A DNA stretch of 41,331 nucleotides from a virus. The first letter of the stretch is position 1. Every line of letters begins with the position of its first letter. Of the stretch, positions 6,130 through 41,014 are shown piece after piece. Below the pieces are notes generated by a model that did no database searches, had not been told where the DNA came from, and saw only the letters and a list, made by a program, of their open reading frames with translations. The stretch spans positions 1 to 41,331 of the IMG/VR virus record IMGVR_UViG_3300035072_000016. One strand, given 5' to 3'. The translations under genes were made by a program, and so were the position numbers.

Positions 6130-7232
6130 GCCGCGGCCGTCACGATCTCGAGGAAATCAAGCGTCGTCTCGCCGTGCGCATCGACGCGTTGGTGGCGCGC
6201 TGGTTTCCGCATGCGCAAAACGACGGCGGGCGCTATTGGCGGCTCGGCTCGATCCATGGCGAGCCCGGCCAGTCGCTCTGGATTTGGCGCAAGGGCAAGA
6301 AGCAGGGCGAGTGGCATGACGGCGCGAGCGGCCGCGGCGGCGACGCGCTGGCGCTCGTCGTCGCGGCCATGGGCACCGACTTCAAGGCGGCGCTCGAATG
6401 GGCGGCCGGCTGGACGGGCGTCGACCCGGTCGACATGGAGACGCCGGAGCAGCGCCGCGCCCGCGAAGAGCGCTGGAAGAAAGAGCAGGAGCGTCGCGAG
6501 CGCCAAGAGCGCGAAGAGAGCGAGCGCAAGCGCCTCGCCGCCAAGGCGCTGTTTCTTTCCGGCGCGCCGATCGCCGGGACACCGGCCGAAGCCTATCTTC
6601 TCGGCCGCGCCATCGACCTGTCGAAGCTGCCCCGGTCTGTCGATTGCCTGCGTTTCCACGACAGCGTCCACACGGCCGAAGGCGATCACCGGCCGGCCCT
6701 GCTGGCGGCGGTATGCGACGGCGCGGGCTTTCTCACCGTGCATCGGCATTTTCTGTTCCGCCTGCCGACAGGCGAATGGGTGAAGGCCTCCGACGCGCGC
6801 GTGCCGGAAGAGCGCCGCATGCAGGGCAAATCCGCCAAGCAAGCCTATGGACCATTCGGCGGCGGCATGATTCCGGTCTGGCGCGGGGCTGGCCATCATT
6901 CGTGGCGCTCGAAGAACGTCGGCGATGCGACGATTGCGACCGAAGGTCTCGAAGACGCGCTGACATGGGCCTGCGCGCGCCCCGACATGCGCGTCTGCGC
7001 CGCCGTCTCGCTCGGCAATCTCGGCCGCATGTGGCTCCCCCCGCAAATCAGGAACGTGCTCTGGCACCGCCACCGTGGCGACGGACCGAAGGCGCTGGCG
7101 CTCTATGCGAGCCAGGCCGAGGCGATCGCCAAGCGCGGCATCGCGCTCGGCGAGCTATGGGCGCCCGGAGACGCGAAGGATGTGAATGAGTGGGCGCAGG
7201 AAGAGGCGAGAAAAGAGAGGGCGTTGGCATGA
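6126..7232 (+). CDS. Toprim-domain primase-like replication protein, 368 aa
   Basis: The N-terminal part (residues about 15-100: RWFPHAQNDGGRYWRLGSIHGEPGQSLWIW, EWHDGASGRGGDALALV) has the layout of a CHC2-type primase zinc domain without the cysteines, as in DUF7146 proteins. A charged coiled stretch follows (about 105-140, RREERWKKEQERRERQ type). The C-terminal Toprim core has IATEGLEDALTWA with candidate catalytic E273. The usual Toprim DxD after the third strand reads WHRHRGD, so metal binding may be altered. It is paired with the AAA+ protein at 8299-10386. The 3' 218 bp of this gene are duplicated at 7529-7746. Confidence 0.8.
   Translation: MSRGRHDLEEIKRRLAVRIDALVARWFPHAQNDGGRYWRLGSIHGEPGQSLWIWRKGKKQGEWHDGASGRGGDALALVVAAMGTDFKAALEWAAGWTGVDPVDMETPEQRRAREERWKKEQERRERQEREESERKRLAAKALFLSGAPIAGTPAEAYLLGRAIDLSKLPRSVDCLRFHDSVHTAEGDHRPALLAAVCDGAGFLTVHRHFLFRLPTGEWVKASDARVPEERRMQGKSAKQAYGPFGGGMIPVWRGAGHHSWRSKNVGDATIATEGLEDALTWACARPDMRVCAAVSLGNLGRMWLPPQIRNVLWHRHRGDGPKALALYASQAEAIAKRGIALGELWAPGDAKDVNEWAQEEARKERALA
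6997..7214 (+). repeat. 218-bp direct repeat, source copy in the primase gene
   Basis: This segment, the last part of the Toprim coding region, is identical by eye to 7529-7746 (offset 532). It begins at GCGCCGCCGT and ends at GAGAAAA. Identity over 218 bp with no substitutions indicates a recent duplication, or ongoing gene conversion between the copies. Confidence 0.9.
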
Positions 7233-7489: not shown

Positions 7490-7537
7490 CCTCTCCAAGC
7501 CTCCAGCCCCTGCAAGACGAAGTCGCGCGCGCCGCCG
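7484..7537 (+). repeat. 54-bp repeat, left copy of the helicase gene 5' end
   Basis: Bases 7484-7537 match 8297-8350 (offset 813) with three substitutions. The right copy is the translation start of the AAA+ gene. The two copies bracket the inserted block 7538-8296, so they look like the duplicated target ends of a recombination event. Confidence 0.85.
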
Positions 7538-7773
7538 TCTCGCTCGGCAATCTCGGCCGCATGTGGCTCCCCCCGCAAATCAGGAACGTGCTCTGGCACC
7601 GCCACCGTGGCGACGGACCGAAGGCGCTGGCGCTCTATGCGAGCCAGGCCGAGGCGATCGCCAAGCGCGGCATCGCGCTCGGCGAGCTATGGGCGCCCGG
7701 AGACGCGAAGGATGTGAATGAGTGGGCGCAGGAAGAGGCGAGAAAATCCGCGGAAATCGACAATTTCGATTGA
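7486..7773 (+). pseudogene. Chimeric ORF: helicase N-terminus fused to primase C-terminus
   Basis: The GTG at 7486 opens with MTSPSLQPLQDEVARA, the same 16 residues that open the AAA+ protein at 8299. It then switches to AVSLGNLGRMWLPPQIRNVL and the rest of the Toprim C-terminus from the 218-bp duplication. It ends with a short unrelated tail (KSAEIDNFD). The 95-aa product lacks the catalytic glutamate and the zinc-like domain, so it cannot act as a primase. It keeps the GTGA coupling to the upstream gene and may be translated. I read it as a by-product of an insertion and duplication, not a selected gene. Confidence 0.75.
7529..7746 (+). repeat. 218-bp direct repeat, duplicated copy
   Basis: This is the second copy of 6997-7214, joined at its left to a copy of the helicase gene 5' end and at its right to new sequence leading to the NUMOD3-like gene. 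Confidence 0.9.
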
Positions 7774-7804: not shown

Positions 7805-8302
7805 ATGATGGCTATGCATCCGAACACTCGAATCGCGCTGAACAGCCCGGAGACGCGGGCGAAGCGGGCGGCGGCGGCGAAGCGGACCTGGGAAAACCCG
7901 GAGACGCGGGCGAAGCGGGTGGCGGCGCTGAACAGCCCGGAGACGCGGGCGAAGCGGGCGGCGGCGCTGAACAGCCCGGAGACGCGGGCGAAGATGACGG
8001 CGGCGGCGAAGCGGACCTGGGAAAACCCGGAGACGCGGGCGAAGCTCGTGGCGGCGCGGAACAGCCCGGAGACGCGGGCGAAGCTGGCGGCGGCGGCGAA
8101 GCTGACCTGGGAAAACCCGGAGACGCGGGCGAAGCGGGCGGCGGCGCGCGCCCAGAGCCGCGCTATTGTCTGTCCGAAATGGGTTCCTGAGGACCTCATC
8201 TCCGAATTTTACGAGATTGCGTCATCGCATGGCGAAATCGAAGCTTGCGCGCACGTTCGGCGTTTGAAGCGTCAATCGGCCGTTGGCAAAGGCGTCGCGT
8301 GA
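7805..8302 (+). CDS. NUMOD3-like repeat protein, 165 aa
   Basis: Residues about 10-115 are seven copies of N(S)PETRAK followed by Ala-rich or AAAKRTWE linkers, alternating between short and long units. The motif resembles NUMOD3, a DNA-binding module repeated in phage homing endonucleases. No nuclease domain is present in the frame. The C-terminus (CPKWVPEDLISEFYEIASSHGEIEACAHVRRLKRQ) resembles a stand-alone small phage DNA-binding protein. The start ATG ATG at 7805-7810 has GGAGAGG directly upstream. The stop overlaps the helicase GTG. The gene is the unique cargo of the inserted block and may be what moved it. Confidence 0.7.
   Translation: MMAMHPNTRIALNSPETRAKRAAAAKRTWENPETRAKRVAALNSPETRAKRAAALNSPETRAKMTAAAKRTWENPETRAKLVAARNSPETRAKLAAAAKLTWENPETRAKRAAARAQSRAIVCPKWVPEDLISEFYEIASSHGEIEACAHVRRLKRQSAVGKGVA
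7837..8146 (+). repeat. In-gene tandem repeats coding for seven PETRAK motifs
   Basis: Units containing AGCCCGGAGACGCGGGCGAA or AACCCGGAGACGCGGGCGAA recur seven times with spacings of about 36-54 bp. They stay in one reading frame. Near-identity of the units at DNA level suggests recent expansion or slippage, which could change copy number between strains. Confidence 0.85.
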
Positions 8303-13748: not shown

Positions 13749-13780
13749 CGTAATCTCCCGGAATCGCGCCGTCCTGTAGG
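13749..13780 (+). promoter_or_regulatory. Late promoter motif, copy 1 (terminase block)
   Basis: CGTAATCTCCCGGAATCGCG at 13749-13768 is identical to three other copies in the late region. Six bases later lies TGTAGG (13775-13780), the weakest -10-like match of the four but with TA at the same offset. It precedes the terminase genes, leaving a leader of about 410 nt. Confidence 0.7.
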
Positions 13781-13834
13781 CTACCGGTCGCTCTCGCGCG
13801 CGAAGCGGCATGCGCCCAGCGGGCGGGGGTTGGG

Positions 13835-14113
13835 GTTGCAACAAGGCCTTTGAGCTTGTTGCGGCGATGTTGCAAAGATAAGGCGCTGTATTCGTGGCGT
13901 CTTATCGAGAAACGCAACTGCGCAACGGCTGCAACCTCACATGCGCGCGTATGCGAAAACAGGCGTCGCAGGACGCAAGACGATCGCTATACGCGCGCGC
14001 ATCTATGTTGCAGGTGTTGCATGTTGCATTATTAGTAAAGATATATACTTATCAATAGGTTAGAGTTGTTAATTTTCGCAACAAGGCTGCAACGTCCGGT
14101 TTTCGATGTTGCA
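13835..14113. repeat. TGTTGCA iteron-like cluster with AT-rich centre
   Basis: TGTTGCA occurs at 13868, 14006, 14015, 14022 and 14107. There is also GTTGCAAC at 13835-13842 and reversed TGCAAC at 13930 and 14088. Three copies at 14006-14028 are nearly tandem and are followed by an A+T-rich stretch (14027-14075). GCAACAAG (13838-13845) pairs with CTTGTTGC (13855-13862). The 13519-14196 stretch holds no protein gene I can support. Position suggests either a replication origin with iterons and an unwinding element, or the terminase packaging site just upstream of the small terminase gene. Confidence 0.5.
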
Positions 14114-14196
14114 TCCTCGGACTGGCGGAGAGGCGCGGCGGCGATGGCGCTGGCGCGTGGCGATTAAAAATCCCCGGATATTCCGCGGGACCGGGG

Positions 14197-16873: not shown

Positions 16874-17064
16874 GCGAGGAAACGCTGTTGAGCGCGGCGC
16901 GCCGCGTTGTTCGGTTTTTCAACATCGATATGAATCACGGCGGGCTCGTGAGCGTCGACACACAGCAGGCGATCGACACACTCGACAAGATGGTGCGCGC
17001 GACTGAGGCGTCCGCGCCGCAGGACAGGCAAATTGCGCATCAAGAATCTCGGCAATTGGCATGA
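16870..17064 (+). CDS. Hypothetical protein, 64 aa
   Basis: The GTG at 16870 overlaps the terminase stop, with GAGGAGGAGAGG upstream. The protein contains SAARRVVRFFNIDMNHGGLVSVDTQQAIDTLDKMV and is helical. Small proteins of this kind often sit directly after the terminase in T7-like phages. No family recognised. Its stop overlaps the next start (ATGA). Confidence 0.65.
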   Translation: MSEETLLSAARRVVRFFNIDMNHGGLVSVDTQQAIDTLDKMVRATEASAPQDRQIAHQESRQLA

Positions 17065-17615
17065 TCGTCCGTCCCGCCACGGCCGTCGACATCGAGCGCG
17101 TCGTTTGCAACATGCGACGAGACGATGTCTTCGAGGTCTATTCCGACCGCTTCGACAAGACGCCGGAAGCGCTGATCGCCGATTTCGTCGCCGCGCGGCC
17201 GCGCATGCTCGGCCTGTTGGCGCTGTGCGGCGATGGCGGGTACGCCATCGCCCTCCTCGGCGCCCAGCTCGTCACGCCGGCCCGCGCCGACGTGATCATG
17301 ATCGCGACGAAGGAATGGCCGGAGATCGCCGCGGCCGCAACGCGCTACGCGCTCCGCAAGGCGATCCCGATCTATCTCGGCGGCGTGCGCTCGGCCGAGT
17401 GCCGCGCCTGGGATGGCAACCACGTCTCGCGCCGCTGGCTGGCGCGGCTCGGGTTTCGCGTCGCCGCCGAGCTTCCCCTGCATGACGAGAGCGGAGCGAC
17501 CTTCCTGCTCTACCGCTGGCTCAACCCGAAGTTCACGGGCGTAATCTCCCGGAATCGCGGGGCGGCCTATGGTGGCCATGGAGCGACGCCAAGCCCGCCG
17601 GGGCCAGCGCCATAA
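17061..17615 (+). CDS. GNAT-like / T7 gp13-like protein, 184 aa
   Basis: The N-terminus MIVRPATAVDIERVVCNMRRDD is the typical opening of GNAT-fold proteins and of T7 gp13-like internal virion proteins that share the fold. A late strand-helix (YALRKAIPIYLGGVRSAECRAWDGNHVSRRWLARLGFRVAAELP) fits the acetyl-CoA side of the fold, but the R/QxxGxG/A loop is not clear. The last 25 codons run through late promoter copy 2, and the extra tail (GVISRNRGAAYGG) is probably read-through of regulatory DNA. Placement between terminase and portal favours a virion role; enzymatic activity is uncertain. Confidence 0.6.
   Translation: MIVRPATAVDIERVVCNMRRDDVFEVYSDRFDKTPEALIADFVAARPRMLGLLALCGDGGYAIALLGAQLVTPARADVIMIATKEWPEIAAAATRYALRKAIPIYLGGVRSAECRAWDGNHVSRRWLARLGFRVAAELPLHDESGATFLLYRWLNPKFTGVISRNRGAAYGGHGATPSPPGPAP
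17540..17571 (+). promoter_or_regulatory. Late promoter motif, copy 2 (drives gene-free unit)
   Basis: The 20-bp motif is at 17540-17559, followed after 6 bp by CCTATG (17566-17571). It overlaps the 3' end of the GNAT-like gene. The transcript it would make starts near 17578 and meets the terminator at 17937-17971 without any credible protein gene. Confidence 0.75.
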
Positions 17616-17971
17616 GAGGGAAGCGGCGGACAGGCTGTGGATTTGCCTTGCTGACTAACCCCCGCATCAAAAATCTAACGCTAGCTCAGCGCAGAGCCGA
17701 GGAAGTGGAAGGCTTCCGCCCTATTCGCCCGAAAGGGCAACATAGGTGAGCCGAACGGGCTGCTTCCCCGGAAGTCAAGCCTGGCAACCTGCGGGGAGCG
17801 CTTCTAGGCCGGCGCGTCGATCCGTAGGCCTTTCCCAAGCGAAAGAACCAGAGGCAAAACCGGGAGCACGGGAAAACTGGATGAGCCCGCCCGGTCGGGT
17901 TCGAGTAGGCGATGCGATGGCGCGGACCGTCGCAGAAGGCCGGCAGGATCACTCCTGTCGGCCTTTCGTTT
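17578..17971 (+). ncRNA. Candidate structured phage non-coding RNA, about 394 nt
   Basis: The unit runs from late promoter copy 2 to a strong terminator and contains no supportable protein gene after 17615. Local helices are visible. CCTAT (17720-17724) pairs with ATAGG (17742-17746), enclosing GCCC-GAAA-GGGC (17727-17738), a GNRA-capped stem. TTTCCC (17831-17836) can pair with GGGAAA (17870-17875). As an alternative, CCAG (17848-17851) pairs with CTGG (17877-17880). GAGCCCG (17883-17889) pairs with CGGGTTC (17896-17902). Several GAAA and CAAAA loop-like strings recur. I could not match it to RNase P, tmRNA, 6S, SRP RNA or a group I or II intron. A packaging, regulatory or host-interaction RNA is possible. 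The ends are inferred. Confidence 0.6.
17937..17971 (+). terminator. Strong rho-independent terminator
   Basis: AGGCCGGCAGGA (17937-17948) and TCCTGTCGGCCT (17953-17964) form a 12-bp stem with one G-U pair and a TCAC loop, followed by TTCGTTT. Late promoter copy 3 starts only 4 bp later, so it insulates the non-coding unit from the portal operon. Confidence 0.85.
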
Positions 17972-17974
17972 AGG

Positions 17975-18006
17975 CGTAATCTCCCGGAATCGCGCACCCG
18001 CCTAGA
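17975..18006 (+). promoter_or_regulatory. Late promoter motif, copy 3 (portal/scaffold block)
   Basis: The 20-bp motif is at 17975-17994, with CCTAGA at 18001-18006 after 6 bp. The first gene of the block starts at 18102. It lies directly after a terminator, so a fresh start of transcription is needed here. Confidence 0.8.
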
Positions 18007-18101
18007 CTGCTCGTCGTTCGAACCTCCAGTTCGAATGGACGAAGTCAACAACTTGGGCGCGGACGCTGATCCGGCCGCGCCCCATTTTCCGGAGAGCGCC
18101 G

Positions 18102-18395
18102 ATGTGCGGCGGTTTGTTCGGCCGCGGAGGCGGCGGCGCCACTCAGCAGATGCTCGCCCTTCAGGCGATCCAGCAACAGCAGATGGCGGATCAGCAGGCG
18201 GCGGCGGCGCAACAGGCGCGCACCAGCGCGGCGGCCTCGATCGCACAGGCCAATCTCGACACGGAAAGCTCACGCGTCGCCGCCGAGAACCGCTTGCGCC
18301 GCGCCAATATGGCGCAGGGCTTCACCGCCTCCATCCTCGGCGGCGGCCAGATGGGCGCGCCGGGCGTCGGCGTCAAGTCGCTGTTCGGACAGTAA
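18102..18395 (+). CDS. Small Gln/Ala-rich virion-type protein, 97 aa
   Basis: The product opens MCGGLFGRGGGGATQQMLAL, then has a Gln/Ala-rich helix (about residues 17-70) and a Gly-rich end (GFTASILGGGQMGAPGVGVKSLFGQ). CGGAGAGCGCC precedes ATG 18102. The MCG-type start and helical, small-residue build resemble internal virion protein gp14-like sequences such as that at 27459 (MCVSPVQG). The role is unknown. It is the first gene after late promoter copy 3. Confidence 0.65.
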   Translation: MCGGLFGRGGGGATQQMLALQAIQQQQMADQQAAAAQQARTSAAASIAQANLDTESSRVAAENRLRRANMAQGFTASILGGGQMGAPGVGVKSLFGQ

Positions 18396-18414: not shown

Positions 18415-18702
18415 ATGGATTTCGGTGATGCAATTCGCGCATTGAAGGCAGGCAAGCGCGTCGCTCGTGAGGGCTGGAATGGAAAGGGCATGTGGCTGTC
18501 GCTGAGCGGAGACGCCCCCCGCAAGATCAGCTCTGACAAATTTTGGTCGAAGAACAACGCGGCCTATGCAGACGAACAATTCGACCAATGCGCGGTCGTG
18601 CTGCCCTGCATCACCATGAAAACCGCGACTGGCGAAATCCTCATGGGCTGGAACGCTTCGCAACCCGACATGCTCGCCGAAGACTGGGCTGTGGTCGAGT
18701 AA
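18415..18702 (+). CDS. DUF2829 / Tad2-like protein (Thoeris anti-defence family), 95 aa
   Basis: The protein begins MDFGDAIRALKAGKRVAREG and continues WNGKGMWLSL, then carries PCITMKTATGEILMGWNASQPDMLAEDWAVVE. This is the full signature of DUF2829, whose members include Tad2, shown to neutralise the Thoeris defence by sequestering its cyclic ADP-ribose signal. The WNGKGM and WxASQxDMLAEDW motifs are intact, so signal binding is plausible. It is encoded between a small virion-type gene and the portal, overlapping the portal start (TAATG), so it is made late and at virion-gene levels. Other DUF2829 members have no tested function. I am sure of the family and moderately sure of an anti-defence role. 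Confidence 0.88.
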   Translation: MDFGDAIRALKAGKRVAREGWNGKGMWLSLSGDAPRKISSDKFWSKNNAAYADEQFDQCAVVLPCITMKTATGEILMGWNASQPDMLAEDWAVVE

Positions 18703-22604: not shown

Positions 22605-22639
22605 CGATCGGCGCCGAGTGGAAACGGCGCTGTTTGCGG

Positions 22640-22679
22640 ACCCCGGCAGGACTCCAGCCCTGCCGGGGTTTCTTTTTTT
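22640..22679 (+). terminator. Strong rho-independent terminator after the scaffold block
   Basis: ACCCCGGCAGG (22640-22650) and CCTGCCGGGGT (22659-22669) form a perfect 11-bp stem with an 8-nt loop, followed by TTCTTTTTTT. It separates the portal/scaffold operon from the capsid operon. Confidence 0.92.
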
Positions 22680-22684
22680 GCCTT

Positions 22685-22929
22685 GCTCTGGGCCGGCCCA
22701 ACCGCGAGAGCACACCCGTAATCTCCCGGAATCGCGCGGGCGCCTATGATGCGCGGCGCATGGACGTTGTGAAGTTTCTTCCCCCGGTTGGGCTGGCCCA
22801 GAGGTGGAAGAAAAATCGCAATCGCTGGCCGCACCCGGATCGTCCTTCCGGCCCGCCTGATGGCTGAAAGCAAGCGCGCGATCCCGGCGCTTTGGTTTTC
22901 GTCTCGCTCCGGACCAGCCCGACCGCGAG
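22685..22929. repeat. Palindromic TGGGCCAGCCCA repeats before the capsid gene
   Basis: CTCTGGGCC-R-GCCCAACCG occurs at 22686-22704, inverted at 22785-22803 and diverged at 22907-22925. Another copy lies after the capsid operon at 24521-24539. The core is itself palindromic, and some copies are flanked by TCTCGC...GCGAGA, so each can form a hairpin. The copies at 22686 and 24521 follow directly after terminators. No protein gene is supportable in 22605-23020. Confidence 0.7.
22717..22748 (+). promoter_or_regulatory. Late promoter motif, copy 4 (capsid/tail block)
   Basis: The 20-bp motif is at 22717-22736, with CCTATG at 22743-22748 after 6 bp. The capsid gene starts at 23021. The promoter follows the terminator at 22640-22679. 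Confidence 0.8.
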
Positions 22930-24518: not shown

Positions 24519-24545
24519 CGCTCTGGGCCAGCCCAACCGCTCGAG
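24519..24545. repeat. Palindromic TGGGCCAGCCCA repeat, fourth copy
   Basis: CTCTGGGCCAGCCCAACCGC at 24521-24540 repeats the element found three times before the capsid gene. It ends 6 bases before the ATG of the tail tube gene and overlaps its leader. Confidence 0.7.
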
Positions 24546-40949: not shown

Positions 40950-41014
40950 TGTCTGGGGGACAAGGGGTCGTGGGTTCGAATCCCGCCACTCCGACCATTT
41001 AAGTCATTGAAATT
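40950..41014 (+). repeat. attR: right copy of the 65-bp attachment core
   Basis: It is identical to attL at 63-127. It includes the tRNA-Pro 3' end (to 40997) without the 5' half, so no functional tRNA is formed here. A single TTTCGAC lies at 40910-40916 on the phage side. Confidence 0.95.

What the first reader, a model, noticed from the sequence alone, without database searches (positions are those of the whole stretch)
17578..17971. Gene-free, structured late transcription unit: candidate novel phage ncRNA
A late promoter copy and a 12-bp-stem terminator bracket about 394 nt with no credible ORF. The segment has a GNRA-capped stem (17720-17746) and several further complementary segments. 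It lies between the terminase and portal blocks, and promoter copy 3 starts immediately after it, so it looks like a stand-alone RNA gene. Its position near packaging genes invites comparison with packaging RNAs, but that is speculation.
Basis: partly seen in the sequence, partly recalled or inferred. Interest (0 to 1): 0.78.

Follow-up and report, generated by a model that had tools for sequence, protein, structure and literature searches.

The report
Late phage transcript without a gene
A prophage from an unidentified host carries, next to an anti-defence-like gene, a 390-base stretch that has its own late promoter and terminator but no protein gene; it probably makes a short non-coding RNA of unknown role, but no relative carries it and it is not unusually folded.

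Summary
Four exact copies of CGTAATCTCCCGGAATCGCG occur, each exactly 8 nt before a -10-like TAnnnT (P1 13749, P2 17540, P3 17975, P4 22717). A 13-bp hairpin plus T-rich tail (17936-17966) is one of only two such terminators on the + strand, and P3 starts 9 nt after it. Between P2 and that terminator there is no coding signal (no third-position GC bias, no protein family in six frames).

The 'structured' claim is not supported. Without the terminator the segment folds no better than shuffled sequence (z between about -0.7 and +0.7). No Rfam family matches, and no homologue was found in the phage, plasmid and viral collections, so covariation could not be tested.

About 16 distinct related phages lack the unit. 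In the closest, one late promoter follows the same upstream gene and the next gene starts within about 180 nt. The window therefore carries an extra RNA-terminator-promoter cassette in a variable region that holds a Tad2-like gene here and an Acb2/Tad1-like gene in relative L021. A packaging RNA is unlikely. Most likely it is an accessory, late-transcribed ~387-nt non-coding RNA; an inert spacer between a terminator and an added promoter is nearly as likely.

The parts
17540..17573 (+). P2: late promoter copy (20-nt element CGTAATCTCCCGGAATCGCG 17540-17559, 8-nt gap, -10-like TATGGT 17568-17573); predicted start about 17580
   Evidence: a promoter repeat of different sequence sits at the same place (end of the upstream gene) in relative L010
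17580..17966 (+). predicted non-coding transcript, about 387 nt
   Evidence: no GC3 signal, no protein family, no Rfam match; extent inferred from promoter and terminator, no transcript shown
17720..17746 (+). GNRA-capped hairpin CCTAT-TC-GCCC-GAAA-GGGC-AAC-ATAGG; can extend to GGCTT/GAGCC (about 17711-17752)
   Evidence: modest, and no evidence of conservation
17883..17902 (+). 7-bp hairpin GAGCCCG-CCCGGT-CGGGTTC
   Evidence: sequence only
17936..17966 (+). intrinsic terminator, 13-bp stem, tail TTTCGTTT
17975..18008 (+). P3: late promoter copy (element 17975-17994, -10-like TAGACT 18003-18008) that restarts transcription toward the head genes
13749..13782 (+). P1: late promoter copy upstream of the TerS-like gene
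22717..22750 (+). P4: late promoter copy upstream of the major capsid gene, preceded by terminator 22639-22670
17061..17615 (+). upstream gene (PHROG 308, annotated internal virion protein); its last 36-38 nt overlap the predicted transcript
18102..18395 (+). small head-region gene (MCGG...) that follows the upstream gene directly or closely in relatives
18415..18702 (+). Tad2-like gene (PF11195) in the same accessory region

Best explanation
The window is an integrated podovirus-type prophage. During lytic growth a late activator switches on four copies of one promoter. P2 drives a roughly 387-nt RNA that codes for no protein and ends at its own terminator; P3, 9 nt further on, restarts transcription for the portal block. 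The unit is an accessory cassette (RNA, terminator, extra promoter) placed at an operon boundary where relatives have a single late promoter. The most likely use is a late phage sRNA acting in trans on host or phage RNAs or RNA-binding proteins, comparable in layout to StxS/6S RNAs of lambdoid phages. Shown by sequence: promoter repeats, terminator, lack of coding signal, absence in relatives. Inferred: that the promoters are active and late, that the RNA is made, that it has any function.
For: Four exact promoter elements with fixed spacing to a -10; three promoter repeats of other sequence at homologous places in relative L010 (2287, 5526, 9062) and three repeats, with the middle one just after TerL, in L026; terminator far above chance and directly before P3; no coding signal or decayed-gene match; unit absent from relatives, where the flanking genes abut or lie within about 210 nt; the surrounding stretch is variable and carries a Tad2-like gene here and an Acb2/Tad1 hairpin-domain gene in L021; StxS is a documented sRNA made from a phage late promoter-to-terminator stretch (PMC7873438).
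Against: No excess folding stability outside the terminator; no homologue anywhere searched, so no sign of selection; no complementarity to the rest of the prophage beyond chance; no expression data; host unknown, so host targets cannot be examined.
Confidence: 0.4

Rival explanations
1. Inert spacer: the selected elements are the terminator and P3, which separate the terminase operon from the head operon. The transcript between P2 (the old promoter) and the terminator is a by-product, or the untranslated 3' end of the upstream operon, without a job of its own.
For: No excess structure, no homologues, no protein; P2 is at the place of the single middle promoter of L010, so only terminator plus P3 need be new; the same terminator-then-promoter order occurs at P4.
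Against: An insulator would not need about 350 nt of non-coding DNA in a densely packed genome; it leaves P2 doing nothing useful.
Confidence: 0.34
2. Antiterminated leader, as with lambda pR'-tR': P2 starts a leader that stops at the terminator unless a phage antiterminator lets polymerase run on into the portal block.
For: Long promoter-proximal leaders follow all late promoters (about 100-430 nt here and in L010); the shared element lies where the -35 would be, as a regulator-binding site could.
Against: P3 already drives the same genes just after the terminator; no terminator with a T-rich tail follows P1, P3 or P4, nor the L010 promoters; no Q-like protein identified.
Confidence: 0.1
3. 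Remnant of a protein-coding accessory gene, or a very short leaderless ORF (17578-17658, 26 codons).
For: The region is an accessory hot spot for small genes; the 26-codon ORF begins where transcription should start.
Against: No match in six frames with stops masked; no coding composition over the segment.
Confidence: 0.12
4. Packaging RNA like phi29 pRNA.
For: Location among packaging and head genes only.
Against: Relatives with homologous terminase and portal lack it; pRNA is described as unique to phi29-like phages (PMC11476376) and there is no Rfam match; TerL keeps conserved acidic residues expected of a nuclease domain.
Confidence: 0.01

Closest known systems
StxS / lambda 6S RNA (late promoter pR' to terminator tR' transcripts)
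   Same: Short RNA bounded by a phage late promoter and an intrinsic terminator, without a gene (PMC7873438, PMC12197685)
   Different: A second promoter follows the terminator here, so no antitermination is needed; no shown Hfq binding or target; unrelated phage group; no sequence match
phi29 packaging RNA (pRNA)
   Same: Phage RNA gene close to packaging functions by position
   Different: No Rfam match, longer, different terminase type, absent from relatives with homologous packaging proteins
Prophage morons / anti-defence islands (Tad2, Acb2/Tad1 genes)
   Same: Accessory unit with own promoter and terminator placed between conserved structural genes, beside a Tad2-like gene
   Different: Encodes no protein; uses the phage's late promoter, not a separate host-type promoter

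Membership tests
Phage late-promoter sRNA (StxS/6S type) | Late promoter and intrinsic terminator bracket a short non-coding segment | tested here: met
   (sequence level only)
Phage late-promoter sRNA (StxS/6S type) | Terminator is read through by antitermination to express downstream late genes | not testable with these tools
   P3 after the terminator argues against need; no T-tailed terminators after other late promoters
Phage late-promoter sRNA (StxS/6S type) | Stable RNA observed, RNA chaperone bound, base-pairs with targets | not testable with these tools
   no expression data; no target within the prophage above chance
phi29-type pRNA | Sequence/structure match to a described packaging-RNA family | tested here: not met
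   no Rfam match at gathering, and none to a packaging RNA among the weak matches up to E 10
phi29-type pRNA | Conserved alongside the packaging ATPase and connector | tested here: not met
   absent in relatives with homologous TerL and portal
Conserved structured RNA class | Compensatory base changes across homologues | tested here: inconclusive
   no homologue found to align
Conserved structured RNA class | Folding stability above composition-matched shuffles, terminator excluded | tested here: not met
   z +0.66, 0.05, -0.71, +0.55, -0.43

The most novel reading that the evidence does not exclude
A late-expressed, RNA-only accessory element in an anti-defence island: the RNA itself counters a host defence or sequesters a host RNA-binding factor, beside the protein anti-defence gene (Tad2-like).
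Probability: 0.07. Interest if true: 0.75.

Novelty: new member of a known kind. Interest (0 to 1): 0.33.

Why it matters
If transcribed and functional it would be a phage-encoded late RNA in a podovirus lineage where I know of none described, and would show that phage accessory islands can carry RNA-only units using the phage's own late promoter. If not, it is a useful example of punctuation (promoter-terminator-promoter) that mimics an RNA gene.

Tried and rejected
DNA similarity to phages and plasmids: a Paracoccus hit (E 0.1) proved to lie in an unannotated, apparently frameshifted thrS-like gene (identified by eye from the reading, not by a search), chance. Exact-pattern scans of viral contigs with the promoter (two versions) and three RNA segments: nothing, except two 19-20-nt matches (L035, L036) that lie at or in protein-coding sequence of unrelated phages, chance. 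Six-frame translations with stops masked against PHROGs and Pfam and against relatives (one weak E 0.003 hit to the opposite strand of L034, judged composition). Complementarity to the prophage: not above shuffles. Similarity between the RNA and the leaders of other late promoters here or in L010: none beyond chance. Relatives in bacterial genomes: none by two scans; the genome search could not draw relatives for a virus record. tmRNA, tRNA-like and group I/II intron resemblances noticed by eye were not borne out by ARAGORN or Rfam.

Full report
What the window is. The 41,331-base window is a virus record. A 65-bp repeat at 63-127 and 40950-41014, the first copy overlapping a tRNA-Pro gene, and an integrase gene at 614-1798 mark it as an integrated prophage. 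Its late genes (TerS-like by position, TerL, a PHROG 308 protein, a small head-region gene, portal/connector, scaffold-like, capsid, tail proteins) resemble those of podoviruses of the BPP-1/HTVC010P kind.

The punctuation is real. A 20-nt element occurs four times without change (13749, 17540, 17975, 22717), and each copy is followed at exactly 8 nt by TAnnnT. Relative L010 (portal 59% identical) has three copies of a different element: before TerS, at the end of the PHROG 308 gene, and before the capsid gene. L026 has three copies of yet another (5498, 8418, 12270), the middle one directly after TerL. This layout is what one expects of activated late promoters. The window differs in having two copies, P2 and P3, in the middle position. 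On the + strand only two strong hairpins carry a T-rich tail, 17936-17966 and 22639-22670; shuffles give 0.1 on average. Both sit just upstream of a promoter copy (P3 and P4).

The segment between P2 and the terminator is non-coding. GC content at the third codon position, 0.87-0.89 in TerL, the PHROG 308 gene and the small head-region gene, does not stand out in any frame of the segment (0.67/0.66/0.58 overall). Six-frame translations with stops masked match no PHROG or Pfam family at E<=1. A 26-codon ORF at 17578 cannot be excluded. The upstream ORF runs about 36-38 nt into the transcript.

It is not unusually structured. Without the terminator the energy is within the range of dinucleotide shuffles at every base-pair span tried. 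The GNRA-capped stem is genuine but modest. By contrast the leader of P1 (13786-14196) is far more stable than shuffles (z -3.4 to -6.8) and similar in sequence to the same region of L010; its iterated GTTGCAAC words beside TerS suggest the packaging site (inference).

No relative has it. Of the related contigs gathered by TerL and portal, about 16 distinct phages hold the TerL-to-portal stretch, and in none does blastn find the segment. The PHROG 308 gene and the small head-region gene overlap or lie close together; the longest gap, about 200 nt, is in L009-L011 and holds a late promoter and hairpins but, in L010, no T-tailed terminator. Searches of phage and plasmid records and exact-pattern scans of viral contigs found nothing real. 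Covariation therefore could not be tested.

Setting. The stretch from TerL to portal is variable among relatives. In the window it also holds a Tad2-like gene (18415-18702, PF11195, E 1.5e-25); in L021 the same place holds a gene with the Acb2/Tad1 hairpin domain (E 3.1e-9). The RNA unit thus sits in an accessory region that includes anti-defence-like genes. This is neighbourhood evidence only.

Interpretation. The best reading is an accessory cassette added between P2 and the small head-region gene: a late transcript of about 387 nt, its terminator, and a second promoter restoring expression of the head genes. Its layout resembles the promoter-to-terminator stretch that yields StxS in Shiga-toxin phages (PMC7873438) and the lambda 6S RNA (PMC12197685), but here a promoter follows the terminator. 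Whether the RNA does anything is open; an inert spacer between the old promoter and a new terminator-promoter pair explains most facts nearly as well. A packaging RNA is disfavoured because the packaging proteins' relatives do without it and pRNA is described as unique to phi29-like phages (PMC11476376).

Noticed in passing
13786-14196 (P1 leader), and L010:2319-2743: Between late promoter 1 and the TerS-like gene lies a strongly inverted-repeat-rich element with iterated GTTGCAAC words and an AT-rich patch (..TATCAA..GGTTAG), similar in relative L010; likely TerS binding/packaging site. Folding z about -5 to -6.
   Followed up: partly
18415-18702; L021:2400-2624: Tad2-like anti-defence domain gene between head genes; relative L021 has an Acb2/Tad1 hairpin-domain gene at the same place, suggesting an anti-defence hot spot beside the portal gene.
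   Followed up: partly
13761, 17552, 17987, 22729: All four late promoters carry GAATC (a GANTC, CcrM-type methylation site) between the -35 and -10 positions; it is part of the exact repeat, so whether methylation or a GcrA-like factor matters is untested.
   Followed up: no
22683-22702, 22785-22804, 24520-24539: An 18-20 nt word CTCTGGGCCaGCCCAACCG recurs three times around the capsid gene (one copy inverted); unexplained.
   Followed up: no
6997-7214 and 7529-7746; 7835-8182: A 218-nt perfect direct repeat and a repeat array of 39/51-nt spacing near the replication genes; may indicate recent duplication.
   Followed up: no
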